Source: a virus
DNA length: 64,000 bases
Reading direction: 5' to 3' (one strand)
IMG/VR virus record: IMGVR_UViG_3300050343_000214
Location: 41,802-105,801 of that record
Below are positions 30,592 to 63,143 of this stretch, in pieces; within the stretch, counting starts at the first letter, position 1, and each line of letters opens with the position of its first letter. The notes below the pieces were generated by a model. The model was not told the origin of the DNA and did not search any database. It worked only from the letters and a program-made list of their open reading frames with translations. The position numbers and the translations under genes are program-made.

Positions 30592-32151
30592 TTATGTTTC
30601 AAAAATTTTATTTACAATAAACGATGTGTCATTCTTATTAACTTGTCCGCAAAATACAAGATTGTTACCCTCGTATAATATATATTTGTATTTATTCTTA
30701 ACTTTGGGGAATATTATTACACTGTCTAGGATAGATGTATCATCTTCTATTGTTAGAAATGCCATCATTTCCCCTTTAGAATTGCCCTTTGTAATCTTGT
30801 ATTCAGATAGTCTTTGTATGTTTGCCACAACGCATAGGTTTTTACCCTTTTTGCCATTGACTATTTCCTTGCATGTGGTGTCTGCGGCAGACTTGTCAGC
30901 TACATCAACTCTAGTTAAAGTAACGGGACAGCCTAGAAATCTAGTTTCTTGATCAATAACCCAGCCCGGATCGTCATCTAGGCTATACGGTGGGTCAATA
31001 AGAAGTTGAATTTCATTTTCTATTACTTGTTGTCTGCTTACCCTAGATGTACCCCCGCCATTTTTTTTGGTGGGCGCTAGAGATTTCAATGCTTCTAAGA
31101 GACTATCCCAAGACTTATTTTTATAGTTTGTGTCCATCCACGAAACTTCGCCTTTAGTTAGAACTCGAAAGATCTCATAGTCATACAGGGCTTGATTCCT
31201 CGAAACTTTAGACCCAAAGTCTCTAAAAAATCCTATTGATGCCAAAGCCTTGAAAGATGTTGAGCTAATTTTTGTGCTAAATTTGAGCAGTATCTCCAAC
31301 CAATCAAACTTCTGTATCTTCTTACCAGATTCTTTTTCACACTGCTTGACTGCTTGAAATACTTTATCTCCACTTACGCCTGATAAGGATTTAACATTTT
31401 TAATACCAAAATATATCTTATTTCTCTTACTATTAAAGTCTAAGTCAAAATTTGCAAGGCTAGGAGTTCTTGTTTCAATATCAAACAACTTTGCTTCTGA
31501 TACTAATTCGTATACTTCTTGTTGAGGATCTTGTTTTTCATTGGCGTAAAATAGGTATGCTAGAAAAAATTCATTAGTATTATGGGCTTTTTGGTATGCG
31601 CTCCAGTAGGAACACACTGCGTAAGATACGCTGTGAGATTTATTAAATGCATATCGAGCAGAGGCTTGAATCCAACCAAAGATTTCTTCTGCCTCTTCTT
31701 TGTTGACCATTCCTACTTTCTTAGCTCCCTTAATAAACATTGTTTTTACTTTAGCCATTAAGTCAGCTTTCTTTTTACCAATAGCCTTGCGTAGCCCGTC
31801 TGCTTCTTCTAGATTAAATCCAGCAATCTTTTGCGCAATACGCATAGATTGCTCTTGATATACTAACACTCCGTATGTAGGCAAAAGAATTTCTTCTAGT
31901 GATTCATGTAGATATGTAACCTCTTCACGACCGTGCTTACGGTCAATGAAGTGTTGTGTCATAGATTTTCCATCTACGTATGCCTTTAAACATCCGGGCC
32001 TAATGATAGCGATTAGGGCAGATAGTTCTTCGATATTGTTAGGGGCTAACTTTTTCGACCAAGACTTACCCAGATTACTTTCTAATTGAAAGACACCCTT
32101 TGTTTTGCCTTCTGCAAACAGTTCCCAAGTTAGTTTATCGTCGTAATTCAT
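30592..32151 (-). CDS. dnaE: DNA polymerase III alpha, C-terminal part (split gene)
   Basis: 519 residues starting at the region equal to the E. coli DnaE fingers: TKGVFQLES, then IIRPGCL, LVYQEQSMRIA, ADGLRKAIGKKK and AFNKSHSVSYAVCSYW. A helical HhH-type region follows, and an OB-like segment with MMAFLTIEDDTSILDSVIIF near residue 455-475. The catalytic aspartates are not here but in the separate gene at 34167-35738. The start overlaps the upstream glycosyltransferase gene by 17 bases. No intein sequence is present at its N-terminus. The product must assemble with the N-terminal half to form a working polymerase. Confidence 0.9.
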   Translation of the reverse strand: MNYDDKLTWELFAEGKTKGVFQLESNLGKSWSKKLAPNNIEELSALIAIIRPGCLKAYVDGKSMTQHFIDRKHGREEVTYLHESLEEILLPTYGVLVYQEQSMRIAQKIAGFNLEEADGLRKAIGKKKADLMAKVKTMFIKGAKKVGMVNKEEAEEIFGWIQASARYAFNKSHSVSYAVCSYWSAYQKAHNTNEFFLAYLFYANEKQDPQQEVYELVSEAKLFDIETRTPSLANFDLDFNSKRNKIYFGIKNVKSLSGVSGDKVFQAVKQCEKESGKKIQKFDWLEILLKFSTKISSTSFKALASIGFFRDFGSKVSRNQALYDYEIFRVLTKGEVSWMDTNYKNKSWDSLLEALKSLAPTKKNGGGTSRVSRQQVIENEIQLLIDPPYSLDDDPGWVIDQETRFLGCPVTLTRVDVADKSAADTTCKEIVNGKKGKNLCVVANIQRLSEYKITKGNSKGEMMAFLTIEDDTSILDSVIIFPKVKNKYKYILYEGNNLVFCGQVNKNDTSFIVNKIFET

Positions 32152-32818
32152 ATGAAGCTTTTTTACTCTCTATAACTTTACTCAAATTTTTGTATTTTTC
32201 AACTAAGCACTTTTGTAGAGGTTGATTACTAGTGCTAATACTACAGTCGTGATAAAGGAATGATGAACTGTCACCATGATTAAATGTGTCGCGTGGAAAA
32301 ACCTCGGTTATATCTCTTACTGGTTGTAGCTCTTTTAAAGTTTTTTGTATCAATACTTGATCTACTGTCGTAAAATTGTCACTGTTAGCCGTAGCTATAA
32401 TGTATTTAAAAAAATTCTTGGAGGCATAAGAGTTCTTTATTATAGCAGATCCAGCGTTGATATTCCAATATGAATTCTCAGAACAACTCTCCGCAGTACA
32501 CCAAAGAATATCCTTATTAGACATCTTAGTGATACATCTCATATCAAATCCAAAATTACATATGGCTATATCTGTGTCCATAGCAAAGAAATAATCTACG
32601 TCCGGTCTTTCTTCTAATAACTTTAAAAGTATTATCCACTTTGTATAGTATCCTTTAGTATGATCCCCACCGTGTTGTGCTACCATGTCGTCATTGTTAT
32701 AGACTTTATACTCAATATCAAACCTGCTAAAATAGTGCTTGTTGTGATTATAAGTTAACTTGTTGATATCGTAAAAGTTTTGATCATGATTAGAGAATGC
32801 AAGTATTTTACTTGACAT
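32135..32818 (-). CDS. GT-A glycosyltransferase (DxD type) between the polymerase halves
   Basis: 227 residues. PDVDYFFAMDTDIAICN contains a DTD motif in the position of the metal-binding DxD of GT-A enzymes such as GT34/GT8, and NINAGSAIIKNS is the usual loop after it; a late HGDSSSFLYHD segment supplies the conserved HG. These enzymes transfer hexose from a nucleotide sugar. It overlaps the exonuclease gene upstream (11 bases) and the polymerase C-half downstream (17 bases), so it is fully integrated in the replication operon. Confidence 0.7.
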   Translation of the reverse strand: MSSKILAFSNHDQNFYDINKLTYNHNKHYFSRFDIEYKVYNNDDMVAQHGGDHTKGYYTKWIILLKLLEERPDVDYFFAMDTDIAICNFGFDMRCITKMSNKDILWCTAESCSENSYWNINAGSAIIKNSYASKNFFKYIIATANSDNFTTVDQVLIQKTLKELQPVRDITEVFPRDTFNHGDSSSFLYHDCSISTSNQPLQKCLVEKYKNLSKVIESKKASYELRR

Positions 32819-33488
32819 ACAATCCCCCGTTGGCGAATGCTTTATCTAGTTCAATTTCTTGGTAAACTGCTCGATGAGTTTTTAGTAGCTTTATAAATAT
32901 ATTAGCAGTATCTTTGACATCCTGCAACGCATCGTGAGCATTTTCGGAACTTAATCCCATGCGCTCTCTCAAGCTATCCATGCTTATGGATCTAATGCTA
33001 GGATCTCCCTCTGTCCACATGTGCATATTATCCATAACGTCACACTTGTGAATTTTGCTGAACATTTTTTGCTGCTGCCTCGCGTCGTCGTAAGGTCCGT
33101 ATTCTTTACATAGCCTATTAATGATAATCATATCAAAGCCAATGATGTTAAAACCTACGGGGATGGGATTAAAGAAAGGATCTTTTTTCCAATTATATTT
33201 GTCTACAAAGGTGCAAAACTTTCTCCATACTGATTTTAAGGTTGGAGCCTTTGCTAAATCATCTCTATTTTTTCCAGTAACTTTGAGCGCCCCGTCTTCG
33301 ATTGGATCTAAACCTGCGGCAATAGCGGCATCGTCGCTAAGAATAGGTCTAATCTCACTGTTAAAAGTTCCCTTCATAGACAAGTTTCTACCATCCAGCG
33401 CTAAGGCAGCGATTTGAGTAGGTTGTGTTTTATGAGGGTTACGACTTCCTGTTTCAAAGTCAAATACGATATAGTCTCTGTTAGCCAT
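32808..33488 (-). CDS. DEDDh 3'-5' exonuclease (DnaQ-like), probable proofreader
   Basis: 226 residues. Exo I motif IVFDFETGS (D and E), Exo II VGFNIIGFD, and Exo III ENAHDALQDVKDT (H and D) give all residues of the DEDDh site. Such enzymes remove mispaired 3' ends. It lies between the two halves of the polymerase alpha gene, whose own PHP domain appears to lack metal ligands, so this protein is the likely separate proofreading subunit. Ribosome site AAGGA six bases before ATG. Confidence 0.85.
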   Translation of the reverse strand: MANRDYIVFDFETGSRNPHKTQPTQIAALALDGRNLSMKGTFNSEIRPILSDDAAIAAGLDPIEDGALKVTGKNRDDLAKAPTLKSVWRKFCTFVDKYNWKKDPFFNPIPVGFNIIGFDMIIINRLCKEYGPYDDARQQQKMFSKIHKCDVMDNMHMWTEGDPSIRSISMDSLRERMGLSSENAHDALQDVKDTANIFIKLLKTHRAVYQEIELDKAFANGGLYVK

Positions 33489-33490
33489 AG

Positions 33491-34180
33491 TTAGTCCTTC
33501 TTTTCTATTCTTTTAGTAAAAAGGGAGTCGCCAGAAATTCCTTCAAACTGATATTCCCTTGCTTGTTCGTGTAATCCGTATTCATTCAAAAACTCTGCAA
33601 TCTTTTCTAAGCTCTGTTCTCCATCGTACATAATGTATTTTGTTGACCATTCAAAAACCGTAGCCTTTACTGTGGTGATTAAATTCTTACACCCTAAGAA
33701 CGCATGATATTCAGCACCTTGAATGTCCATAAAAATTGCATCTATTGATGGTATATTATATTTCTTACAGAAGCTGTATAGTGAAGTTGTTTTAACCTTT
33801 ACTTCTTCGTGTATGTCATTAACCTTAAAAATACTTTTCATACCTACTCCCGGCTTCAATATAGAACCCTGTCCAGTGTTTTGTAGGTTTTTACCAATCA
33901 TGGTTTCTTCGTCTTTGATACTTTCTGTTGGAAAATATTTGTAGAAACTAATTTCCCCATCCACCGCGCTTATTGCTTTGTGGTAAACGCTGACGTTGGG
34001 ATTATCCTCAAACTTGTCTTTGATGATTTGACAATTAAACGCATCAGCTTCAAATGCATAAATTTTAGCATTAGGCCAAGCGTCTAATATTTCTGGTATA
34101 TCATACCCCCTGTGGGCGCCAACTTCAAATATATGCTTTAAGTCAGGAAAACTTTCCTTAACCCTATTAATGAACAGCAT
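33491..34180 (-). CDS. FkbM-family methyltransferase
   Basis: 229 residues. IFEVGAHRGYDIPEIL is the SAM-binding loop (E-V-G-A-x-x-G), IYAFEADAFNC the acidic ribose-binding strand, and AIFMDIQGAEYHAFLG the FkbM D-I-Q/E-G-x-E motif. FkbM enzymes O-methylate sugars or polyketides. Overlaps the end of the polymerase N-half by 14 bases and is followed two bases later by the exonuclease gene. It would act with the phage glycosyltransferases. Confidence 0.85.
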   Translation of the reverse strand: MLFINRVKESFPDLKHIFEVGAHRGYDIPEILDAWPNAKIYAFEADAFNCQIIKDKFEDNPNVSVYHKAISAVDGEISFYKYFPTESIKDEETMIGKNLQNTGQGSILKPGVGMKSIFKVNDIHEEVKVKTTSLYSFCKKYNIPSIDAIFMDIQGAEYHAFLGCKNLITTVKATVFEWSTKYIMYDGEQSLEKIAEFLNEYGLHEQAREYQFEGISGDSLFTKRIEKKD

Positions 34181-35738
34181 TTGTCAATTCCTTTATTTTC
34201 ATTAGTTTATCTAGGAGGTTAATTCCTAGAACATCAAACTTTACATGACCTAGTGCTTCTAAGTCTGTCATTTCTAAGCCTGCTATCTTTTCTATAGAAC
34301 CTTTCTGTTGTATCATTGGACATACGTTTTGCAATTTGTCTTTAGATATTACCACGCCAGCAGCGTGTTTGCCCTGTGTTTTAAATGTGCCTTCCATATC
34401 AATAGCTTGCTGGAAGTATTGCGCGTAGTCACCATCAAGCTTTCCTTCGTCTGTGATGTTGCAAAAATCTCTTAAGTCATCTGACCTGTTAATCAAAGAC
34501 CAACGTATTATAGATCGGTCTTCGTCGTCCATGTCTGCTAGCTGATCAGATATGTCTGCTTCATTTGGTATACTCTTTGTTATAGCATTCATCTCGCTAA
34601 AAGAACAAGCCTCATTTATCCTTAAAACTTCTTTTATTGCACTACGCCCCTGCAACCTTCCAAATGTTATCATCTGGCTAACATGATCTTTACCATAAGT
34701 TAGTTTAAGATAATCAATAACTTCATCACGCTTTTTGCCCGGAACGTCCATGTCAATATCTGGCAAGGAAACATGACCACCAGTGTTTCTTCCAGCGTTG
34801 TAAAACCTCTCAAACAATAAATCGTGTTCCACTGGATTGATCTTTGTTATACCAATAAGATATGAAATAAGACATCCAGCAGCAGAGCCTCTGCCGGGAC
34901 CAGCAATACAGCCCATGTCATCTTCTACATGCCTTATTATATCCTGAACAATCAAGAAGTAGCCAAATAGATCTGCGTCTTTAATAACTTGTAATTCTTT
35001 CCTGAATCTATCTCCATATATTTTTTGGGTATCTTTATCTTCGCCAACCAGAGGTTTTACAAATTTTGTATATCCCTTTCTAGCCATCTTAGTTAAGTAG
35101 TCTTCTTGAGACAACCCTTTAGGACATACAAATTTCGGAAGCATGGGTGGATTTAAAATTTCATAGTCTTCACAGGAATCATATATATATTCCAACTCTT
35201 TTGTTACTTTGCCTTTCGTAATACACTTGTTGTCCTTAGTAAAATATTCTAGCAAATCAGCATCTAGTTCTTTATTTCTAATTTTAGTATTTACTTTTGG
35301 TAATGTAGTCTTTAATGCAGAACAAAGTAGAACTCTGTGTAAAGCAGCTTGCTTACTATTGACATAATAAGATGGCTGAATGTTATCTTTTTCAGCTTGT
35401 AGGGCAATTAAGTTATTTCTACCTACTATTTCTTTTGCTATGTCTTTTGGCATGTTGCCATTTTCATCAGTAAAAGAAACCATCTGTATAAGGTCGTGCC
35501 ACCCGTCTTTATTCTTAGCATATATTGTAGTGTTATCAAAAGAACATCCAATGATAGGCTTGACTCCCACCTTCTTACACGCTTGATGAAATGACACTGC
35601 GCCAGAGATTGTCTTATAATCTGTGATGCCACACGCAGGATAATCATTGTCAGCACAAACCTTTGCAAGTTCATGCGGTTTTGAAAAGCCTTTTAGCAAA
35701 CTATAATGCGTAAAATTCTTCAATGGAAACCAGTTCAT
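34167..35738 (-). CDS. dnaE: DNA polymerase III alpha, N-terminal part: PHP and palm (split gene)
   Basis: 523 residues aligning to E. coli DnaE from its start to just past the third catalytic aspartate. Seen in order: a short PHP-like region (YSLLKGF, CGITDYKTISGAVSFHQACK, VKPIIG), GPGRGSAAGCLISYLIGIT, LPDIDMD with catalytic D327 and D329 (E. coli D401, D403), ITFGRLQGRSAIK, KTQGKHAAGVVIS, and VKFDVLGI with D502 (E. coli D555). It stops 20 residues after that. The fingers and C-terminal domains are encoded 2 kb downstream at 30592-32151, after FkbM, exonuclease and glycosyltransferase genes. PHP metal ligands look lost (TDY instead of TDH; F/T instead of the HxH start). Together the halves total 1,042 residues, near a normal alpha subunit minus the tau-binding end. 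Confidence 0.92.
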   Translation of the reverse strand: MNWFPLKNFTHYSLLKGFSKPHELAKVCADNDYPACGITDYKTISGAVSFHQACKKVGVKPIIGCSFDNTTIYAKNKDGWHDLIQMVSFTDENGNMPKDIAKEIVGRNNLIALQAEKDNIQPSYYVNSKQAALHRVLLCSALKTTLPKVNTKIRNKELDADLLEYFTKDNKCITKGKVTKELEYIYDSCEDYEILNPPMLPKFVCPKGLSQEDYLTKMARKGYTKFVKPLVGEDKDTQKIYGDRFRKELQVIKDADLFGYFLIVQDIIRHVEDDMGCIAGPGRGSAAGCLISYLIGITKINPVEHDLLFERFYNAGRNTGGHVSLPDIDMDVPGKKRDEVIDYLKLTYGKDHVSQMITFGRLQGRSAIKEVLRINEACSFSEMNAITKSIPNEADISDQLADMDDEDRSIIRWSLINRSDDLRDFCNITDEGKLDGDYAQYFQQAIDMEGTFKTQGKHAAGVVISKDKLQNVCPMIQQKGSIEKIAGLEMTDLEALGHVKFDVLGINLLDKLMKIKELTNAVH

Positions 35739-48670: not shown

Positions 48671-50908
48671 CTAAATTATATCACACTTCCCGCCAGCGCA
48701 AGCTACTTCTTGAACTGGATTAACATTATTTTGTTTTTCTATTACCACTGTGTAGTCTATATCCTTGTACTCACGTTTAATATCTAGCCATTCTTTCCAG
48801 TTGTAGACATCTTTCATGCAATATGTAAGTTGTTTTAGATCTCCGTTCCATGTATCTGTCAGCAAACTGTTGACATTTATTTTGATAGGACTTTTTATCT
48901 TTGCCTTTATGTTTTTGACCAACACCTAGCAGGCTATCGCAGGCTGCCCAAAGATTATCTTCATACAGTGAAAGTCCAACTTCTATCAGTCCACTAACAA
49001 ACATCGCAGCGTCTCCGTAGTGCTGTATCTGCTCGCTAGGTAAATACACCGTTGTGAATGGAGCTTGTGCGTAGTCTTTATCTCCAGCGATTGGTAATAA
49101 AGAAACACCACAGAAATACTTACGATTTTTATAAATAAAACTCTGTAACTTCTTCCCATTCGTCTGGTTTAACATTGATAGTATTAGATACATTATGTGT
49201 TAACCAAGGTTGAGTACATTGCTTTGGATTTGTACCGCTTGACAACCCAGTTACGCTGCGTACTCCTGACGTACTCAAGCAAGTCAATTGCTCCAACTTG
49301 ATTTTTAATCTTCGCACCGTCTGGAACCTCCACACAAAATGCTACTACGTCATCCGAGTCATTGTTAGACCATACGGACTCTTCACAGGCTCTAGGATTA
49401 ATACTTCTGAAGTGTTGGTAGATAGGCTCCATTTTATTTGCTTGGACTCTACGGATGTATCTCTTGGCGTGGTGGGGATGTATGCCAGATGACGTTCCAA
49501 GAATGCAACTTGACGTTCCTTCTGGCTTGACACACGTAGTTCTTGCAGCTTGATTGACACCAATTAATTTTGCCAGCTTTTTTATTTGTTTCTTTAACTA
49601 TTTCTGCGCCCTTCTTTTGCACTTCTGGATCAAGACAGATTTCATGTTGCTCCATAACGCCCGTCATCGACACGCCTAACAAAGCTTCGCGGCTTATAAT
49701 TCTTTCTGATACCTCTCCGAGATATGGAAAGCTAGCAAATCCAGCTTGCAGTGTTCCAATAATTGCAGCAGAAGCACATGCTTCGTAAAATTCTTTTTTG
49801 GTTGTTACTTTGGCGCAGTTAATAGTCGATAGATTACACGCCTGCCACCCAGTTTTACCTGTCTTTTCGTCTACAGGCCACATGCCAATTTCCACGCAGG
49901 GATTCACAATCAGCTCTGTAGAATCAGACCAGACAAATCCGGGCTCTCCAAACTCTTTTACGGATTGCATTAGTTCAGAAAATTGTTCTTTAGTTGTCTC
50001 GTTTCGCAAAAGCAATGCAGAATTGTTGGAACGTCCGCGCTGTGGGTTGTCAGTAAACCATGATCCAGTTTTGGCTTTCGCCATTTCTTCGTCGTCAGCA
50101 GAAAACAAGCAAATTGTAGCGCTACGACGAACACCACCACTAATTACAGCGTCAGCCGCATACATCACTATATCATATGCTTCAATAGGTCTAAGTTTCT
50201 TCTGTCCATTTTTAATAGCTCCGTCAAGGGTCTTCTTGATTTGCTTGTAAGGGCATTTCTTAAAGGATCTGGGCCGGGAGCCTTCCCTCCGCTAGACTTT
50301 AAATGAGAGCCTGCTGGACGTATTTCTGAGTAGTCGAAAACAATTGTTTTACCATTATATTCAGGGAAAAGATTATCTCCCTTAAAATAACTAGAGACAA
50401 GAACGCCCACTGCGTCTGACCATCCCTCAATAGAATCTTTAATGACAAATTTCTTTTGACCATTCTTTCCTTTAATTAAGTTAGGAAGTTTAGCGATATG
50501 ATGTTTTTGTACAGAAAATCCAGTTCCACACCCACATAATAGCAGATACATGCACTCTTGGAAAAATCTTGTTCTATCAATATATGATGCAATACAATTA
50601 TATATTCTAGCATTATGTTTGAATATAGGAGAGCCACCAAACTGCAAAGCTCTTTGTGAACCAAGAAGCTTTTTTCTTCTTCATATCACTCGTATGCTTG
50701 ATCAATATGACCTTAACAATGTCTGCCAATGGAGGTGTTCGTCGCTATCAGTTGTAACACTAGGATCGGATGGGTCAGCATACTTGTCAATCATCATCTG
50801 TCTTACTCGATCAACTGATTCACCCCATGTCTCTCTTCTTTCTTTGCTTTCATCCCACCTTGCGTATTTAGAAACGAACGTATAATTCATCAAGGATTTA
50901 ATTGACAT
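48671..50908 (-). CDS. nrdJ: Adenosylcobalamin-dependent (class II) ribonucleotide reductase, many frameshifts
   Basis: Starts MSIKSLMNYTFVSKYARWDE. Motifs in order across about seven breaks: ARIYNCIAS (first redox Cys), CGCGTGFSVQKHHIAKLP, EIRPAGSHLKSSGGKAPGP, ISGGVRRSATICLFSADD, NPCVEIGMWP (thiyl-radical Cys region), ACNLSTINCAKV (partner Cys), LLGVSMTGVME, KPEGTSS-type loop, and C-terminal VACAGGKCDII, whose C-x4-C equals the CEGGAC pair of Lactobacillus RTPR. Monomeric enzyme reducing NTPs with coenzyme B12. Phage depends on host or environmental B12. Motifs are intact, so the gene is probably functional and the breaks are sequence errors. Confidence 0.88.
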
Positions 50909-54760: not shown

Positions 54761-57082
54761 TTACTCCAAGGTTTCTGCGCATACTGGTGTTACCCCATCA
54801 TTTTTGGGGAAAGGATGACTCCAAAAGACGTTTATTGATTCTACTTGCTTAACGTCGGTAACATCGTATTTAGCTACTGGTATATTGCACAGACTAGCAT
54901 TGGAAAATATATAGCCACTGTGTATCGTCGGAGTTCTCTCAAATAGTTTGTATTCGCCAGCCTCTACGCTAGTTACAATCTCTCCTACACACTCTCCGTT
55001 GGGTGATCCATCGCTATCTAAACACTGATCTGCAAACATCGCTGGGTCGTTTTGAAAGTAGTAAGCTCTAGTAGGATCGCATCCGCAACTTTGTTTACAT
55101 GGCGAAGGAAAAGAATGATTTCTGAAATCTTGTGATATCATTTGTTCCCATACGCTTTGACCATCACCAAAGACTCCAATATCGCATCCACCATAAAAAT
55201 TATCGCCGTATTCCATACACGGCATCATGATGAAAGCTGGATTATCTAGGGGCCAATTTGGATTATCATTATAAAATAACTCTGGATGAGTTTCAAATGT
55301 ACCTTCTGGCTCTAATAGATCAATTAAAAACTCATAATGATCGCTATACTTCTGTTTCCACTCTTCAACTTCTTGATTTGTTAAAGGCTCGGGTTTGACG
55401 CAGGAAAAACCGTAGCCATTATAATGCATATTGTATCCCTCGGGACATCTTCCTTGAGGATCACTTACATTATTATTTGTTTCACACCCATACCTCGGTT
55501 CGTCTACTGCTACAATTCTATAAGTGGGACATTGTAGCACGGTTCCTTTTGAACCGTCTTCATTATAACATTGTATACTAGTAGTTTCTTCTATAAGTTT
55601 TGTACAGCCAGCAACTGGAAGTTGCTTCATAAGATCCGATGACTCTAATGCATCACAAGAACAAGGAACATCTGGAATGTCTTCATATCTACATTGATCA
55701 TCTACTGGACAATCGTCTGGACAAGTGCCGTATCTAGTCCAGCCTACATGTATTTTACCAGCAAGATCAGGACACGCAGGTTCAAGAACTGGTGGATCGC
55801 ATGGCGCTCGGGTCGTGGTTGTTGTTGGTGCGGCAGATGTTATAGGAGGAGGATTTGTTGGTTGGGAAGTAGCTAGAACCGATTTATTGTGACTGAGGAA
55901 TTCATCTGCCACATAAGTATGAGCATCATCTACTTGGATAATAACAACATCTTGTACGCCGTTGTCTTCTATTTTAGATATTGTGCGCCCTTGTAACACT
56001 TCGTCAACCACTAAGTCATACGCTGAAACCCATTGATTTTTATGATAGAACTGATGACTAGGAGAGCATGTGAAAGTACCCCCATCCTCAAAAGATAGTT
56101 TGAGAGTTTCAGATAACTTAATTCCAACGTATGTTATTTCATGCTCACCAGACTCCATAGTTATTTCATGTTGTGTTAATAATTTATCACCCACAACTAA
56201 TTCACCAGCGAGTTTTTCACTACCGTCCGACATTTGAATCGGAGTATCCACCGTGGGGCAACCGGCAATACAAAATATGTGTTTATACATGTTTGATTTG
56301 GGGGGTCATAATAAATGATGCGACGGTTCAAGGAGTCATAGCTACACCAACCACCTGACAACACAGGGGGACACGTTGTTGTGGCTGACGATGTAGTTGT
56401 AGTCGTCGTGTTGGTAGGGTCTGACAAACAGTTTTGCAGACAACCCTCGGCATCAAAAACTCCCAAGTAACCTTCGTTACATAAGCCGTTTGTCTGATTA
56501 GTAACTGATGAAAAATCGCAGGCTTCGCACTCAACTAGCACTACCATGCGCTCTGTATATATCTTAGTTCTTAAATTAGGGTCTCTATAATATATAGTAG
56601 TAGATACAAAGGCATTTTGTCCATCTATTAGAGTTTTGCCCAAGCTATTTTCGTTATCATCTAGAAAATCAGACAGAGGGAAAGTCTCTACTTTAGATTG
56701 TAGATGAGTAGCAGTCTTAATATTATCTTCTGTTGCAAAATTATCAAAGCTGTACTCTACAGTAGTTCCATTATCTATTTGGTCTGAAATATTAAAAACC
56801 ATAGTGACTTCTGCCGTATGGCTATTCAGCTTGCACTTACCATCCTGCTGAACTTTTAGTTGTTCTGGATTAGATGGAGTGTCTAGCTTAAAGGCGTTGA
56901 ACCTAAAGTCTATTTCTCATCATCGCAGTTAGTATACGGGAGAGAAGTGTCTTTACTAATAAATAAATATGTTTCACCATACTCTAGCATATCTATGCCT
57001 TGTAGACCGCCCCCTTCAACAAACGAAACTGTTGACCATTAGTTAAAAACTTAATGATCTTAGATATATTATTAGTATTCAT
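54761..57082 (-). CDS. Cys-rich surface protein containing an intein-like Hint domain; frameshifted
   Basis: From ATG 57082. Frames change at about 57030, 56925 and 56275, giving about 770 residues. Order: an unknown N-terminal domain (IDFRFNAFKLDTPSN, VTMVFNISDQIDNGTTVEY), a short Cys-rich part, a Thr-rich linker (TNTTTTTTSSATTTC), a block ending NRRIIYYDPPNQTC, the 125-residue Hint domain (separate entry), a second Thr-rich linker (SAAPTTTTTRAPC), and a Cys-rich C-terminal domain (CDPPVLEPACPDLAG, CPDDCPVDDQC). Most Cys are in pairs, suggesting disulphides in an extracellular fibre. No reason to call it an enzyme other than Hint. Confidence 0.6.
55886..56260 (-). other. Hint (hedgehog/intein) domain, BIL-like
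   Basis: 125 codons from a Cys after IAG to the Asn of SHN. Block A: CPTVDTPIQMSDGS and ELVVGDKLL. Block B: GTFTCSPSHQFY, with the conserved T-x-x-H-type His. Blocks F/G: VDDAHTYVADEFLSHN. The residue after Asn is Lys then Ser, not the Cys/Ser/Thr that protein splicing normally needs, and no homing endonuclease is present. That layout fits bacterial intein-like (BIL) domains, which cleave or ligate at their ends. Confidence 0.8.
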
Positions 57083-57093
57083 ATTATTTTACT

Positions 57094-57378
57094 TTATGGT
57101 CGAGATCTAGGGTCTTTCATTGCCTTTTTAATAGCTAGATTGACAACACAATCTGCGCCAAACTTGACAAACGGTAGTTTTCTCTTAGTGGCTTCTTCTG
57201 CTAACCAAGTTAATATTTCTTCCTTATTATCTTGACACCATTTAATTCCTTTATTATCCATCTGCGCTGCGCGTTGATTACAAGAACATGTTGGTGTGGA
57301 TTTAATGCCTACTAGACTAAACATTTTCTTAAGCTCCGCACCAGCACCATGGACTATTTGGGAATTTACTATGCTCAT
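57094..57378 (-). CDS. Small Cys-containing protein, 94 aa
   Basis: GAGAELKKMFSLVGIKSTP, then CSCNQRAAQMDNKGIKWC and EEILTWLAEEATKRK. The GAGxELKK...C-x-C...A-x-MD-x-x-G-x-x-WC pattern is one I associate with a family of small proteins in Planctomycetota and some phages; I cannot check this. May be fused with 57329-57541 if an indel lies in their overlap. Confidence 0.55.
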   Translation of the reverse strand: MSIVNSQIVHGAGAELKKMFSLVGIKSTPTCSCNQRAAQMDNKGIKWCQDNKEEILTWLAEEATKRKLPFVKFGADCVVNLAIKKAMKDPRSRP

Positions 57379-57541
57379 TATCTAAATAATATACTTCTGC
57401 TTTTATCTCTTTACCTTCCCCGGTCTTTAATTGTGCCATTTCATCTGATTTTACTACGCAGGGCAGAGTTTCTTCTACGGTATAATTTCTTTGTTTGCAT
57501 AAGTTTTCGTAAGCTTGTTTTTCCATTTTAACGATTGGCAT
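57329..57541 (-). CDS. Small hypothetical protein, 70 aa
   Basis: Good ribosome site (GGAG five bases before ATG). Sequence KQAYENLCKQRNYTVEETLP then an acidic KTGEGKEIKAEVYYLDNE. The last 16 residues overlap the next gene in another frame, so either a 50-base overlap or one missing base joins them into a single about 150-residue protein. Confidence 0.45.
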   Translation of the reverse strand: MPIVKMEKQAYENLCKQRNYTVEETLPCVVKSDEMAQLKTGEGKEIKAEVYYLDNEHSKFPNSPWCWCGA

Positions 57542-57638: not shown

Positions 57639-60600
57639 TTACGGATAAGAGTTCTCTTCGTAGCCTTCTGCAAACTGGCCTGTACATTCTTCTTCCGGCG
57701 GTGAGGGACACCGACAGTCAGCGACGGTTTGAACCGTAGCGCCTTCGCTGCCCTCATGGGTAGGCATTGAGTCCCCACAAATCTCTCGTAGCGAAGCACA
57801 AGTACTGTCACCGCAGTCTCCATCGGCACCGCTGAAAACCCACCACTCTATGACCTCTGAAACTGTACACTGTTGCTGAAGCCATTCATTAGCTACGTCA
57901 CTTATAGTTCTAGTGCCTAAACACAGATCTTCCCATAAAGAACTTGGCATTGTTTCACATGTATGCTTCGTCTCAAGGTATTCTAACTCTTTTGACAAAT
58001 CTTCAGTTATCTCATCTAAGTAATCACTAGTATCACCACAGCATTGATTGGGGATAGTTAGTAAAAGTGTCCCAAGACCAGTTACAATTAATAGAATTTC
58101 CTCCTGCGCATGTGCAGGGCGTTGGTGCTGCTGTGGTTGACGGCGGCGGGGCTGTTGGTGGTGCAGGTAAGTCAGGACATTGATCCCAACCTGTTTGACA
58201 GCCATCAGCACCATAAATTGCCTCGACAGGAAATCCATCGTCGCACACGGGTGATGCCAACGTAAAGTCTGGACATTCAGGTGGGCCGGGAATATCAGGT
58301 GTTGTTCTTGGTGGTCGTGGTCCTAACGTTGGATTTGGTGGATTAGGAAATGGTGGAAATGGACCCATAGGTGGTATCGGTGGTATCGGTGGTGCAGAAG
58401 GTAAAGGTGGTCGTGGTGGATATCTCGGAGGATTGTTTGGTGTTGGATCAGGATCTTCTGGTGTTGGATCAGGATCTTCTGGTGTTGGATCAGGATCTTC
58501 TGGTGTTGGATCAGGATCTTCTGGTGTTGGATCAGGATCTTCTGGTGTTGGATCAGGATCTTCTGGCGGTGGATCAGGATCTTCTGGACACTCATCCCAA
58601 CCAGTTGGCAGTCGTTCTCATCGAAAGTTCCTGATGGCGAAGAAATATTACCATCTTCATCTCACATTCGGGTGCTGCTCGTTAAACGCTGGACAATCAC
58701 ATGAACCCCAACCAGTTTGGCAGTCGTCCTCATCGAATTCTCCAGATGGAGAAGTGTCGTCTGGGACATTCGGGCTTTGGTTCATCAAATTCTGGACAGG
58801 GGCATTTTCCCCCAGCCTATTTGACAGTCATTATCATCTGATTCTGGTTCAGGAGAAGAAATATTACCATCTTCATCTACGCATTCGGGTGCTTCCTCGT
58901 CAAATTCTGGACAGGGGCATTTTTCCCAACCAGTTTGGCAGTCATCATCATCATAAATTCCATCTGGTGAAGATCCATCTTCGCACTCGGGTGCTGGATC
59001 TGAAAATTCTGGACATGGACATTCACCCCAACCTGTTTGGCATCCAAGCCATCATATATCGCCTTCAACGAAAACGAGATCTCCGTTGGAGGAGGGTGCG
59101 CATTCGGGTTCTGGATCGTTAAATGGCGCACAAGTGGTAGTTGAGGTAGTAGAAGAAGTAGTACACCCTGACAGACATGTATTACCACAAAGGTCTCTTA
59201 CTACTATATCATATGTCACTGTTTGTGGCAAACCGCCAAACGGCGACTCTATTAAAACCGTTTTAGTACCCATCTGTATGCCTCTTCCATGCTTAGGTGG
59301 ACACGGCGGGTACGAGTCAGCATCGCAATCGCAATCTGGTGGAGGGGGAGGACACTCACCCCAACCTGTTTGGCAGCCGTTCTCGTCCTCAGTTCCTTCC
59401 GGCGAAGAGCCGTCTGCACACTCAGGCGCTGGAACGTCAAACTCTGGACATTCGCATGGACCCCAACCCACAACGCAGTCTAAACCATCGGATCGTTCTT
59501 CACCGTCTTTCAGTGGTATAGCGCTTGTTCCTTCTGGACATTCTGGTGCGTCTGGTTCAGGAGGACAGGTTGCGGCGGCGGGTCTGTTGGTGGTGGTGTG
59601 GTATTACAAGGTTCATGACCAGTATGACACCACAAGCCGGGAGCTGTTTCCGAGGTTATTGGTCTTCCTCCACCGAGTTCGCATTGTGGGTCATCCGGTC
59701 CCGGGGACATGTTGGTGGTGCTTCCGTGGTTGTATTGCAGGAATCGTAGCCACTAACACACATTGTTCCATCGGGTCCAGTGAACCAAATGGGATCTCCT
59801 CCACCAAAAGAACAGTCGGGAGGAGGTGGTTCAGGGAGGACATTGAAAATCTGGACATCCACAACAAATATTGCCTACTTCATCTTTACTATCCTCAAAT
59901 GCTTGGCTACCATCGGGCTGTGTAACGGGATTCTGTATCGGCTCCGGCGCTCCATACAAGCACGTTCTGCCGCAAGTGCCCTCACAGCTATTGTCAGGGG
60001 GGAGGGAGAGTGGTCGTTGTTGTTGTACTACAAAGGCAGCCAGTAACATTGTCACAAGCGTCTGTAAATTCTTCTTCTACACTGAGCGGAGAGCAGTACG
60101 AAGAGCATCCATTTCTTCAACTATTATACACTCACAGTCATCTGCATTGTCGGGACAGCCACAAAAAGTATAATCAGGAAGAGAAGTGTCGCAAGGATCA
60201 GGGTTACAATCCCATCCAATAATTCCAGATGGGCAACAATCAGAGTCCGTTGAATTGCCTTCCATCCTTACGCTCATTGCATATATTGGCACTGGTTCGT
60301 TACCGTTATCACAAGGTATTTTTGGAGGACAACAATCTTCTGGCTCTTCTGGACAGTCTCCCCAGCCTGTTTGGCAGTTGTTGTCGTCGAAAGTGTCCTT
60401 CCGCGAAGAGCCGTCTGAACACTCAGGTGCTGGAACGTTAAACTCTGGACAATCACATGATGTGTAGCCAATTGTACAGCCATATATGTCTTTTATTATA
60501 GTGGGCAATGTTCCGTCTGAGCATGGGGGTGGAACAGCGGGAGGCGAGTCACACACCACTGGAGGTAAAGTCGTTGCGCACATCTGCCTGTCGGGATCAT

Positions 60601-62002
60601 AGAAAGTACCAGAAGCACATATGCAATTTTGCACAGACTTACCGTTCATAGTTAGATTTGGCCCAGATATAGATCCTAGTATATTTCATTACAAGGTCTG
60701 TGTTCAGGTGCTGACGGCCTGTCTTTACAATCGCTATAATTAACGCACTCTATAGCTAGTCCGTCTGGCCCCAACGTCAGTCCGATAGAAGTTTCTCTGT
60801 ATTGATTTTCCCCACATGGCGCTGGCTCGCTGAACAACCATTTGGCGGTTGCGTGGTTTTACATACGTATTCACCACAAGGTTTGGGAATATTAACATTA
60901 ATCGGTGGTTTAATAAAATCAACGCCGGTAAAGACAATCTAAATCAGGCAAGTATGAATAATCAACAACACACATAGTTTGGACAACCATTACTTGGTAA
61001 ATCCATCTTGATTAAGTACTTCGTATAAATCCGTACAGTTTGCCGCATTAAATTCTGCCCCTGTTGGACAAGCTGTAGTGGAAGTTGTAGTTGTACTAGT
61101 TGTTGTTGTGGTAGTGCTAGTTGTTGTGCTTGTAGTTGAAGTTGTAGTCACTGGGATACAGTTGTGTTGATCACATCCATCTTGTTGGAAAAAAGTTCCA
61201 TCTGGAGTATATCCTTCTGGACAGTCATAAGGCGGTGAACACGTTGTTGTGGTCGGAGCAGCGGTTGTAGTCGTCGTTGTGCTAGTAGTAGTTGTTGAGG
61301 TTGTTGTAGTTTGTAGTTTGTAGCAGCAGAACTACAGTCAACGAGGGACATCCAGCACCATCGTCTTCTACTTCTACCCATTGACCGCTGCCAACAGGAC
61401 ACTCAATAGTGGATGATTCCCACCACGATACATTTGAGCCAGAATCTGTAGTATCACACAGCCAGTTCCAAATTGAGTACACCCAGTTACTGGATCTACT
61501 CCAATTACCTGTGCAGAAAAATTACTAGGACAAGGCGCTGGAGTTGGGCAAGCCGTCGTAGTAGTGCTAGTAGTGGTGCTTGTCGTTGTTGTTGAAGTCG
61601 TAGTGGTTGTAGTGGCGCAACTGCCAGACCCATCATCTGCACAACACATGCCATATAGTTTACAACCAGCCTCATCAATACCAGTGACAATTCTAGTGTG
61701 ATTTGCGTCAGGGACATGGTGCAGGAGTGTTATTACAAGGGGTAACAGGGTCAGAATCTATCGGAACGCACATATATCTTGGGCATGGGTCTTCAAGATC
61801 AAAATTGCCAAAGGTGTTCAATGAGCCGGGACTGTTACTACGGTGACTAGGATATAATATTTTTTCATAGCCAGTTGGACAGGTTTCTGGTTCGCAACAC
61901 TCTCTATATACAGGACAGCCTTCAGAAGTTAGCCCTTTATACGTATATTTATTAAATGTTAATTCGTTTTCAAGGGAAGGTTCTCCATTTAAAATACCTC
62001 AT
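57639..62002 (-). CDS. Giant Cys-rich repeat, Thr-rich (mucin-like) surface protein; heavily frameshifted
   Basis: Coding is continuous on the - strand from an ATGA overlap with the peptidase at 62002 to a TAA at 57639, but frames switch roughly every 100-300 bases (about 1,450 residues in all). Order: GLTSEGCPVYREC, CPTGYEKILYP; a Cys part linked by Thr tracts (near 61560-61615, 61250-61310 and 61080-61140); CTGAEFNAANC-type blocks; then about nine copies of a four-Cys repeat (separate entry); a Pro-rich region with seven DPDPTPE units; and a C-terminal domain (CCGDTSDYLDEITEDLSK, WWVFSGADGDCGDSTC). No membrane helix. Probably a secreted or virion-surface adhesin. It may be two genes, or fused to the peptidase. 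Confidence 0.55.
58170..60550 (-). repeat. Array of about nine four-cysteine protein repeats
   Basis: Consensus: C-P-E-F-x-x-P-x-P-E-C, then D-G-S, an acidic stretch, C-Q-T-G-W-G-x-C. Clear copies lie near 60352-60455, 59360-59457, 58915-59030, 58800-58920, 58690-58800, 58590-58695 and 58170-58280; diverged ones near 60445-60545 and 59455-59545. Frames differ between copies, consistent with indel errors in repetitive DNA. Confidence 0.75.
58436..58582 (-). repeat. Seven tandem 21-bp units encoding DPDPTPE
   Basis: Exact 21-base units (one variant at each end) without spacers, in frame on the - strand as a Pro/Asp/Glu linker. The + strand reading (Gly/Ser repeat) is a shadow. Confidence 0.9.
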
Positions 62003-62922
62003 CTTATAGTCCAATCTACCTTTCTAGGTGGAAAACCATCTACGTCGCTAAAAGCCCAATGCTCCATTTTGATTAAGCATTACCTCTAGCATCTTTTTCT
62101 CGTACCCAAAACTACCATCTGGTTGGTCAAATCTTTTTGGACCACTATTAAATGCTCCCCAACTAGTTTTGTATTAAGAAATAAGGTTTCATTTGTATAT
62201 TTTGTGAGAATCGTCCATAGCCACCCAGCGACATTGCGTGATTCCAAGACCCACTTTTTTTAGCTATGCCATGTTCACTACGGCGTGAGGAAAATCCATA
62301 ATTACTACAGACACTTAAAGCATACCCATTGGCAATAGCATCTCTTGCTTCTTCTACAGATTTAACCATGCTAATAGTTTTGACTTGATGTTTTTTTCCT
62401 TCTTCTTTTACTTCTCGAAGGAACTCCAGCTTCTCCCCCATCTAGTACCAACTCTACTATTATATTTAGACAAATCTACAAACCCATAATCTTTTCTAAC
62501 CAGTATGCCACCGTTTTGATGTACAAATCTAGCAGCTACAGAGCATGACATGCCTTGACCACCATGACCTCTTGATCCATAGATAGCTTCTGTAGCACCT
62601 CTTGCTACGAAATCTTCTGCGTCTGACCACCCACAATTTCGTGACATCTAGTTACATCAACAGCGTTTCTAGTAGAATGTGAAACACAATCGCCAGTAGT
62701 TTGCCGTTCGTGCGCACCAAACGTGGGATCAAACTTTTGCGCTGATTTATAAAGTAACGCAACTTTCCTTCTCCACTACCATACAGATCAGAAGCTGCTA
62801 CACCAAAAAGTGGGTGTGGCAGTTCTCCTAGTAAGTTTATCTGTATCTTCTGGATCACACCAAGATCCTACAAGGCCATTCTTGTAGGCTTTAAGTATGT
62901 CTTGGTTTTTTAAACATATCAT
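61999..62922 (-). CDS. Papain-like (C1-type) cysteine peptidase, frameshifted
   Basis: ATG 62922 overlaps the holin stop (TAATG). Motifs in order: LVGSWCDPEDTDK, HERQTTGDCVSHSTRNAVD (catalytic Cys), GMSCSVAARFVHQNGGIL, ARDAIANGYALSVCSNYGF, KSGSWNHAMSLGGY (catalytic His), and, after a break at 62165, TSWGAFNSGPKRFDQPDG (equivalent of N-S-W-G, with the Asn at the break). So the Cys-His-Asn triad of clan CA is present. About 308 residues. Adjacent to a holin-like gene and to the Cys-rich surface protein; could process that protein, or act on the host surface. Confidence 0.75.
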
Positions 62923-63143
62923 TACTCCGGTACATTATTTTTAGCCCACTTAACTACAGTATTAATAACAACAGCTGCAATGGGAACAATCATAACGCCT
63001 ATATTACCAAGATCTAAGTCTGCCATGTTTTCACCAAAATACGTAAGACCAGCAGCAAGTGCTACAAGTGCTGTATTTTTAGCAATTTCAATAACATCTG
63101 TTACATTAAGAGAAAATGCTGGGGAATTTTTTTCGTCTGCCAT
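62922..63143 (-). CDS. Putative holin, 73 aa
   Basis: Short protein with two hydrophobic stretches (IAKNTALVALAAGLTYFG and IGVMIVPIAAVVINTVV) joined by an acidic turn, and a basic end (KWAKNN), the layout of class II phage holins. Coupled by TAATG to genes on both sides. Holin would time lysis, but no standard endolysin is seen next to it. Confidence 0.6.
   Translation of the reverse strand: MADEKNSPAFSLNVTDVIEIAKNTALVALAAGLTYFGENMADLDLGNIGVMIVPIAAVVINTVVKWAKNNVPE

What the first reader, a model, noticed from the sequence alone, without database searches (positions are those of the whole stretch)
58170..60550. Undescribed-looking four-cysteine repeat array in a phage protein
About nine copies of a roughly 38-residue unit (CPEF..P.PEC.DGS...CQTGWG.CP) form disulphide-rich tandem modules like those of eukaryotic extracellular proteins. 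I cannot match it to a named domain. Such arrays are rare in phages and imply folding in an oxidising compartment or outside the cell.
Basis: partly seen in the sequence, partly recalled or inferred. Interest (0 to 1): 0.65.

Follow-up and report, generated by a model that had tools for sequence, protein, structure and literature searches.

The report
Cysteine-module array in marine phage adhesin
A phage from an environmental (probably marine) sample encodes a giant protein built from at least twelve small four-cysteine modules and threonine-rich linkers, belonging to no catalogued domain family and sitting where its relatives carry tail-fibre genes, so it is probably a disulphide-stiffened host-binding protein; the copy in this window is broken by sequencing errors.

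Summary
The array is real and coding, on the minus strand. In the window the gene is broken by about 24 one-base indels, almost without substitutions, in a long-read-like pattern. A near-identical contig (L002/L010) carries it intact: 1658 aa, 138 Cys. It has 12 modules of C-x8/9-C-x14-22-C-x6-C (nine of them ending in C[QV]xGW), further diverged four-Cys units, Thr-rich linkers and a repeated EDPDPTP stalk. No Pfam, PHROGs, NCBIfam, PDB-sequence, Foldseek-PDB, BFVD or isolate-phage match was found. The gene follows a papain-like peptidase; in 17 of the 30 closest relatives that slot holds an Mtd_N-type tail-fibre gene. A relative (G007) has an 1823-aa, 121-Cys array inside its head/tail gene cluster, followed by a homologue of the small gene that follows the window array. 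In 2.9 million viral contigs that small gene was found only beside these arrays. A third relative has related six-Cys repeats. I read it as a virion-borne, probably disulphide-cross-linked adhesin in a two-gene cassette. Disulphide formation and virion location are inferred, not shown.

The parts
57639..61983 (-). Cys-module array gene, 5'-truncated and frame-broken in the window; intact 1658-aa copy at L002:6497-11473
60452..60553 (-). module 1, CDSPPAVPPPCSDGTLPTIIKDIYGCTIGYTSC (aa 695-727)
60350..60451 (-). module 2, CQTGW type (aa 729-761)
59737..59842 (-). module 3, CVSGY type (aa 932-966)
59606..59709 (-). module 4, CHTGH type (aa 976-1010)
59454..59567 (-). module 5, CVVGW type (aa 1024-1061)
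59352..59450 (-). module 6, CQTGW type (aa 1063-1095)
58573..59132 (-). modules 7-11, five contiguous CQ[TI]GW modules (aa 1169-1350)
   Evidence: AF2 model of modules 10-11
58438..58587 (-). EDPDPTP heptapeptide stalk, about 7 copies; one 21-bp unit more than in the relative
58177..58275 (-). module 12, CQTGW type (aa 1448-1480)
61070..61620 (-). Thr-rich (TTTSTTT) linkers alternating with divergent four-Cys units
57094..57541 (-). small partner gene (148 aa in L002), paired with Cys arrays in two phages at different genome positions; frame-broken in the window
61989..62930 (-). upstream papain-like (C1) peptidase gene, frame-broken in the window; intact in L002:5562-6485. Low end from the alignment; high end estimated
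54761..57082 (-). downstream Cys-rich, Thr-linker protein with an internal HINT (intein-like) domain; 774 aa intact in L002
53801..54403 (-). Mtd_N / Phage_tail_C tail-fibre gene just beyond the cassette

Best explanation
The gene encodes a large virion-associated adhesin or fibre of a tailed phage. Its reach and stiffness come from tandem four-cysteine mini-domains, each a Pro-rich loop plus a beta-hairpin in the model, joined by Thr-rich and EDPDPTP linkers. It is made in the cytoplasm without a signal peptide and put on the particle, possibly with the help of the small partner protein encoded next to it. Its cysteines probably pair as disulphides once the particle leaves the cell, so that it resists outside conditions and proteases while binding the host surface. 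Shown here: the array, the intact frame, absence of known domains, placement in the fibre slot, and the conserved partner. Inferred: virion location, disulphides, host binding, role of the partner.
For: Intact 1658-aa frame with 138 Cys. The gene directly follows a peptidase gene after which 17 of the 30 closest relatives (all those at 74% identity or more) have an Mtd_N-like fibre gene and several others have none, so it is an insertion slot for fibre-type genes. A Mtd_N fibre gene and a laminin-G-like gene follow downstream. In relative G007 the 1823-aa, 121-Cys array lies in the structural cluster, next to a virion structural protein (phrog_6002, E 8e-27) and three genes from a likely major head protein that is 90% identical to that of G000. 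The partner gene is conserved beside both arrays (49% over 101 aa, E 3e-34), and a scan of 2.9 million viral contigs found it only in contigs carrying them. AF2 model of a module pair: mean pLDDT 87, two hairpins. No hydrophobic segment: best 19-residue KD mean 0.78. Thr-rich linkers also occur in other structural-type proteins of the same genome.
Against: No virion proteomics. N- and C-terminal domains are orphans (N-terminal model pLDDT 38), so no attachment domain is recognised and the Mtd_N anchor is absent. Cysteine pairing is not resolved. The link between the window modules and the G007 modules is modest and one-sided: the window profile finds G007 (sum 38 bits against at most 9 in shuffles), but the G007 profile does not find the window protein. 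The partner scan used patterns drawn from only two sequences.
Confidence: 0.62

Rival explanations
1. The array is a metal- or calcium-binding protein: cysteines hold Zn, Cu or Fe in the reducing cytoplasm, or acidic loops bind calcium, and no disulphides form.
For: Made without signal peptide; no thioredoxin-family match in G000 or G001 (one relative, G007, has one); very acidic protein (285 D+E against 60 K+R); DRDGDGDPE-type linkers in the G007 array.
Against: Spacing is C-x8/9-C-x14-22-C-x6-C with no CxxC knuckles and no conserved His. Calcium binding and disulphides are compatible.
Confidence: 0.15
2. The protein is released at lysis or exported and acts outside the particle, for example as a decoy, matrix or anti-grazer protein, not as a virion part.
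For: No recognisable virion anchor; the neighbouring peptidase and HINT protein suggest processing.
Against: Slot shared with fibre genes and, in G007, placement inside the head/tail cluster; no signal peptide.
Confidence: 0.15
3. The window array is an assembly or sequencing artefact with no real gene.
For: The window copy is broken by about 24 indels and loses its first 218 codons at a jump (61983/61989) where identity to the relative falls from about 100% to 81%.
Against: An intact 1658-codon frame exists in a separate contig, and a two-gene counterpart in a third.
Confidence: 0.03

Closest known systems
Mtd_N-type phage tail fibres (PF18454), with RCC1 or laminin-G modules
   Same: Same genomic slot behind the same peptidase gene in close relatives; long modular proteins; one lies just downstream in the window
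   Different: No Mtd_N domain in the array protein; the body is Cys modules and Thr-rich linkers instead of RCC1/beta folds
1823-aa Cys-array protein of phage record G007 (L099:5888-11359)
   Same: Four-Cys modules C-x6/9-C-x16/19-GC-x5-C, Thr-rich linkers, same small partner gene behind it, no known domain
   Different: Module sequence GC[VI]xGYxC with DRDGDGDPE linkers; sits in the structural cluster, not behind the peptidase; sequence link to the window modules is weak
P0002 (1458 aa, 148 Cys) and P0003 (1265 aa, 236 Cys) of record G048 (L097)
   Same: P0002 repeats share GCxVGYxC with G007; same phage group by the peptidase gene
   Different: Six-Cys units; P0002 ends in a beta-propeller-like region; no partner gene found there
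Eukaryotic extracellular Cys modules (EGF, antistasin, TSP3) and sea-anemone toxin PF00706
   Same: Small Cys-rich tandem or knotted units; PF00706/1sh1 is the best chance-level match (E 0.28 and 0.23)
   Different: No significant match to any; Cys number and spacing differ

Membership tests
Phage tail fibre / receptor-binding protein | Encoded in the tail-fibre or structural region | tested here: met
   Slot holds Mtd_N fibres in 17 of 30 closest relatives; G007 array in the head/tail cluster
Phage tail fibre / receptor-binding protein | Known virion-attachment domain (Mtd_N or similar) | tested here: not met
   Pfam, PHROGs, NCBIfam: none in the 1658-aa protein; N-terminal model unusable
Phage tail fibre / receptor-binding protein | Present in the particle and binds the host | not testable with these tools
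   No isolate relative in 50,697 phage records
Known eukaryotic-type Cys module (EGF, antistasin, TSP, TIL and others in Pfam) | Profile score at or above the curated cut-off | tested here: not met
   No Pfam family at E up to 0.1 for the whole protein; best single-module or module-stretch hits 0.011-0.28, below cut-off where a cut-off was shown
Known eukaryotic-type Cys module (EGF, antistasin, TSP, TIL and others in Pfam) | Shared fold with a solved structure | tested here: inconclusive
   Foldseek PDB and BFVD best E 4.4 and 1.7; VIA-align no Z of 2 or more; the model is only 72 residues
Disulphide-rich protein | Cysteines paired | not testable with these tools
   Even number and invariance of Cys per module fit; coordinates of the model were not available to measure S-S distances
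Same module family as the G007 array | Profile similarity beyond cysteine placement | tested here: inconclusive
   A1 profile on G007: sum 38 bits against at most 9 in 100 Cys-preserving shuffles; reverse profile within shuffles; hhalign probability 70%
C1 (papain-like) peptidase, upstream gene | Gln, Cys, His, Asn active-site residues | tested here: met
   Q73, C78, H227, N250 at 99-100% in 80 relatives; PF00112 above cut-off

The most novel reading that the evidence does not exclude
A previously undescribed domain family, four or six cysteines with a GCxxG[WY] hairpin, was expanded in a group of uncultivated phages into giant adhesins. They travel as two-gene cassettes with a dedicated partner that helps fold, oxidise or attach them, so that cytoplasmically made phage fibres are stiffened by dozens of disulphides after lysis.
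Probability: 0.3. Interest if true: 0.75.

Novelty: new variant of a known kind. Interest (0 to 1): 0.52.

Why it matters
Known phage fibres are mostly beta-helical or lectin-like and cysteine-poor (from general knowledge). A phage group that swaps these for arrays of orphan Cys modules with a conserved partner gene would give a new adhesin scaffold and a testable case of how disulphide-rich proteins made in the cytoplasm mature. The module is small enough to express and solve.

Tried and rejected
Named domains: Pfam, PHROGs, NCBIfam, PDB sequences, Foldseek PDB, VIA-align and BFVD gave nothing significant. Isolate phages: no match for the array, the HINT protein, the peptidase, the partner, the G007 array or P0003. 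Bacterial genomes: pattern scans with two module alignments found no confirmed relative; these scans need near-exact short patterns, so absence is weak. N-terminal fold: single-sequence model pLDDT 38, discarded. Phage sulphhydryl oxidase PF04777: uninformative, as no control genome rang. Terminase phrog_2: not found in this partial contig. A first G007 module alignment with out-of-register copies was replaced. Papers: no description found in four searches.

Full report
Origin. The window is bases 41802-105801 of a 105,801-base IMG/VR virus record, and it ends at the contig end. It is a tailed phage: tape-measure, major tail protein and weak head-protein matches on the left part of the record, and phage DNA polymerase, primase, exonuclease, UvsX-like and RNR genes plus an Mtd_N tail-fibre gene in the window. 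No tRNA genes and no PHROG terminase match were found. That the sample is marine is my guess; the records carry no habitat label here.

The observation. On the minus strand the modules are scattered over three frames. A scan of viral contigs found one contig, L002/L010, with the gene intact: 1658 aa, 138 Cys, 187 Thr, 228 Pro. From 57.5 to 61.98 kb the window differs from it by 6 mismatches and about 24 single-base indels; of 27 such indels from 57.09 to 61.98 kb, 23 lie in runs of 2 or more identical bases. This is an error pattern, not decay. One apparently real difference is an extra 21-bp unit in the EDPDPTP stalk. At 61983/61989 the alignment jumps over the first 218 codons, and beyond it identity drops to 81%, so the window contig is deleted or chimeric there.

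Anatomy. Twelve modules fit C-x8/9-C-x14-22-C-x6-C with invariant cysteines and 52% mean column identity; TGT and TGC are mixed at Cys positions. The N-terminal half has further four-Cys units (C-x4/10-C-...-GC-x3/6-C) separated by TTTSTTT linkers. There is no signal peptide or membrane segment (best 19-residue hydropathy 0.78). AF2 on a module pair with seven rows gave pLDDT 87 and one beta-hairpin per module. Neither PDB nor BFVD gave a significant structural match.

Surroundings. The gene lies between a C1 peptidase and a small 148-aa gene, followed by a 774-aa Cys-rich protein with an internal HINT domain, then Mtd_N and laminin-G genes. The peptidase has over 160 relatives in viral contigs. 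In the 80 kept, the active-site Q73, C78, H227 and N250 are 99-100% conserved. In 17 of the 30 closest, the gene right behind it begins with an Mtd_N-like domain; several others have no fibre gene there. The Cys array therefore occupies a fibre insertion slot.

Relatives. A module-profile search over 50 related records gave one match, G007, with an 1823-aa, 121-Cys protein carrying modules such as CDDVEIKICLDENGNEIPAIPTVDSNGCVTGYTC and long Thr-rich linkers. It lies directly behind a virion structural protein, three genes from the major-head-like protein that is 90% identical to that of G000. The gene behind it is homologous to the window's small partner (49% over 101 aa, E 3e-34). Among all fetched loci, and then in a scan of 2.9 million viral contigs, that partner was found only beside these arrays (patterns from two sequences, so distant forms would be missed). 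A third relative, L097, has 1458-aa and 1265-aa proteins with 148 and 236 Cys. Its GCxVGYxC repeats are clearly related to G007's: profile sums 71 and 106 bits against at most 8 in Cys-preserving shuffles. The window's CQTGW modules are linked to G007 only one way (38 against at most 9 bits; the reverse is negative). Shared layout plus shared partner gene make common descent likely, not proven.

Function. The most economical reading is a virion adhesin that replaces or joins Mtd_N fibres. Disulphide pairing is expected from the even, invariant cysteines, but a cytoplasmic product would have to oxidise late. No thioredoxin-family match was found in the window's record, though G007 has one. Metal binding and a role outside the virion remain open. 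The partner protein could be a chaperone or attachment factor; this is inference from gene order only.

Judgement. The feature is real, larger than reported, and matches no catalogued family. It belongs to a known kind (modular phage adhesin) with an unusual and apparently new building block.

Noticed in passing
window 54761-57082 (-); L002:12029-14353: A 774-aa Cys-rich protein has a HINT/intein-like domain (PT-HINT E 1e-4, below cut-off) ending in ..YVADEFLSHN|K, without a C/S/T at +1, as in bacterial intein-like domains that cleave rather than splice. Its first about 45 residues (KIIxFLxNGQ) recur in other large proteins of the phage (L094:7740-9959, L093:17660-19999).
   Followed up: partly
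window 61989-62930 (-); L002:5562-6485: A papain-like peptidase with fully conserved active site is present in at least 163 viral contigs but in no isolate phage record searched.
   Followed up: partly
L097:399-4196: A 1265-aa phage protein with 236 cysteines (19%), many as CC pairs, in no known family.
   Followed up: partly
L051:16191-19283, L054:16372-19374, L055:16398-19469: Related 1000-1030-aa proteins with 72-75 Cys and a shared C-terminus ending APQSIFYEP lie downstream of the same peptidase in another branch.
   Followed up: no
window 61983-61989: Sharp change from near-identical to 81% identity against L010 with loss of 666 bp; possible chimera or recombination point.
   Followed up: partly
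window 30592-32151 and 34167-35738 (-): The DNA polymerase is split in two genes with about 2.0 kb (32152-34166) holding three other ORFs between them.
   Followed up: no
window 49449-50168 (-); L002:18205-20424: Class II ribonucleotide reductase is intact (739 aa) in the relative; a 239-aa ORF matching only its middle is seen in the window.
   Followed up: no
L013:10921-14574: A tail fibre with an Mtd_N start carries RCC1 repeats (E 3e-58) in the same slot.
   Followed up: no
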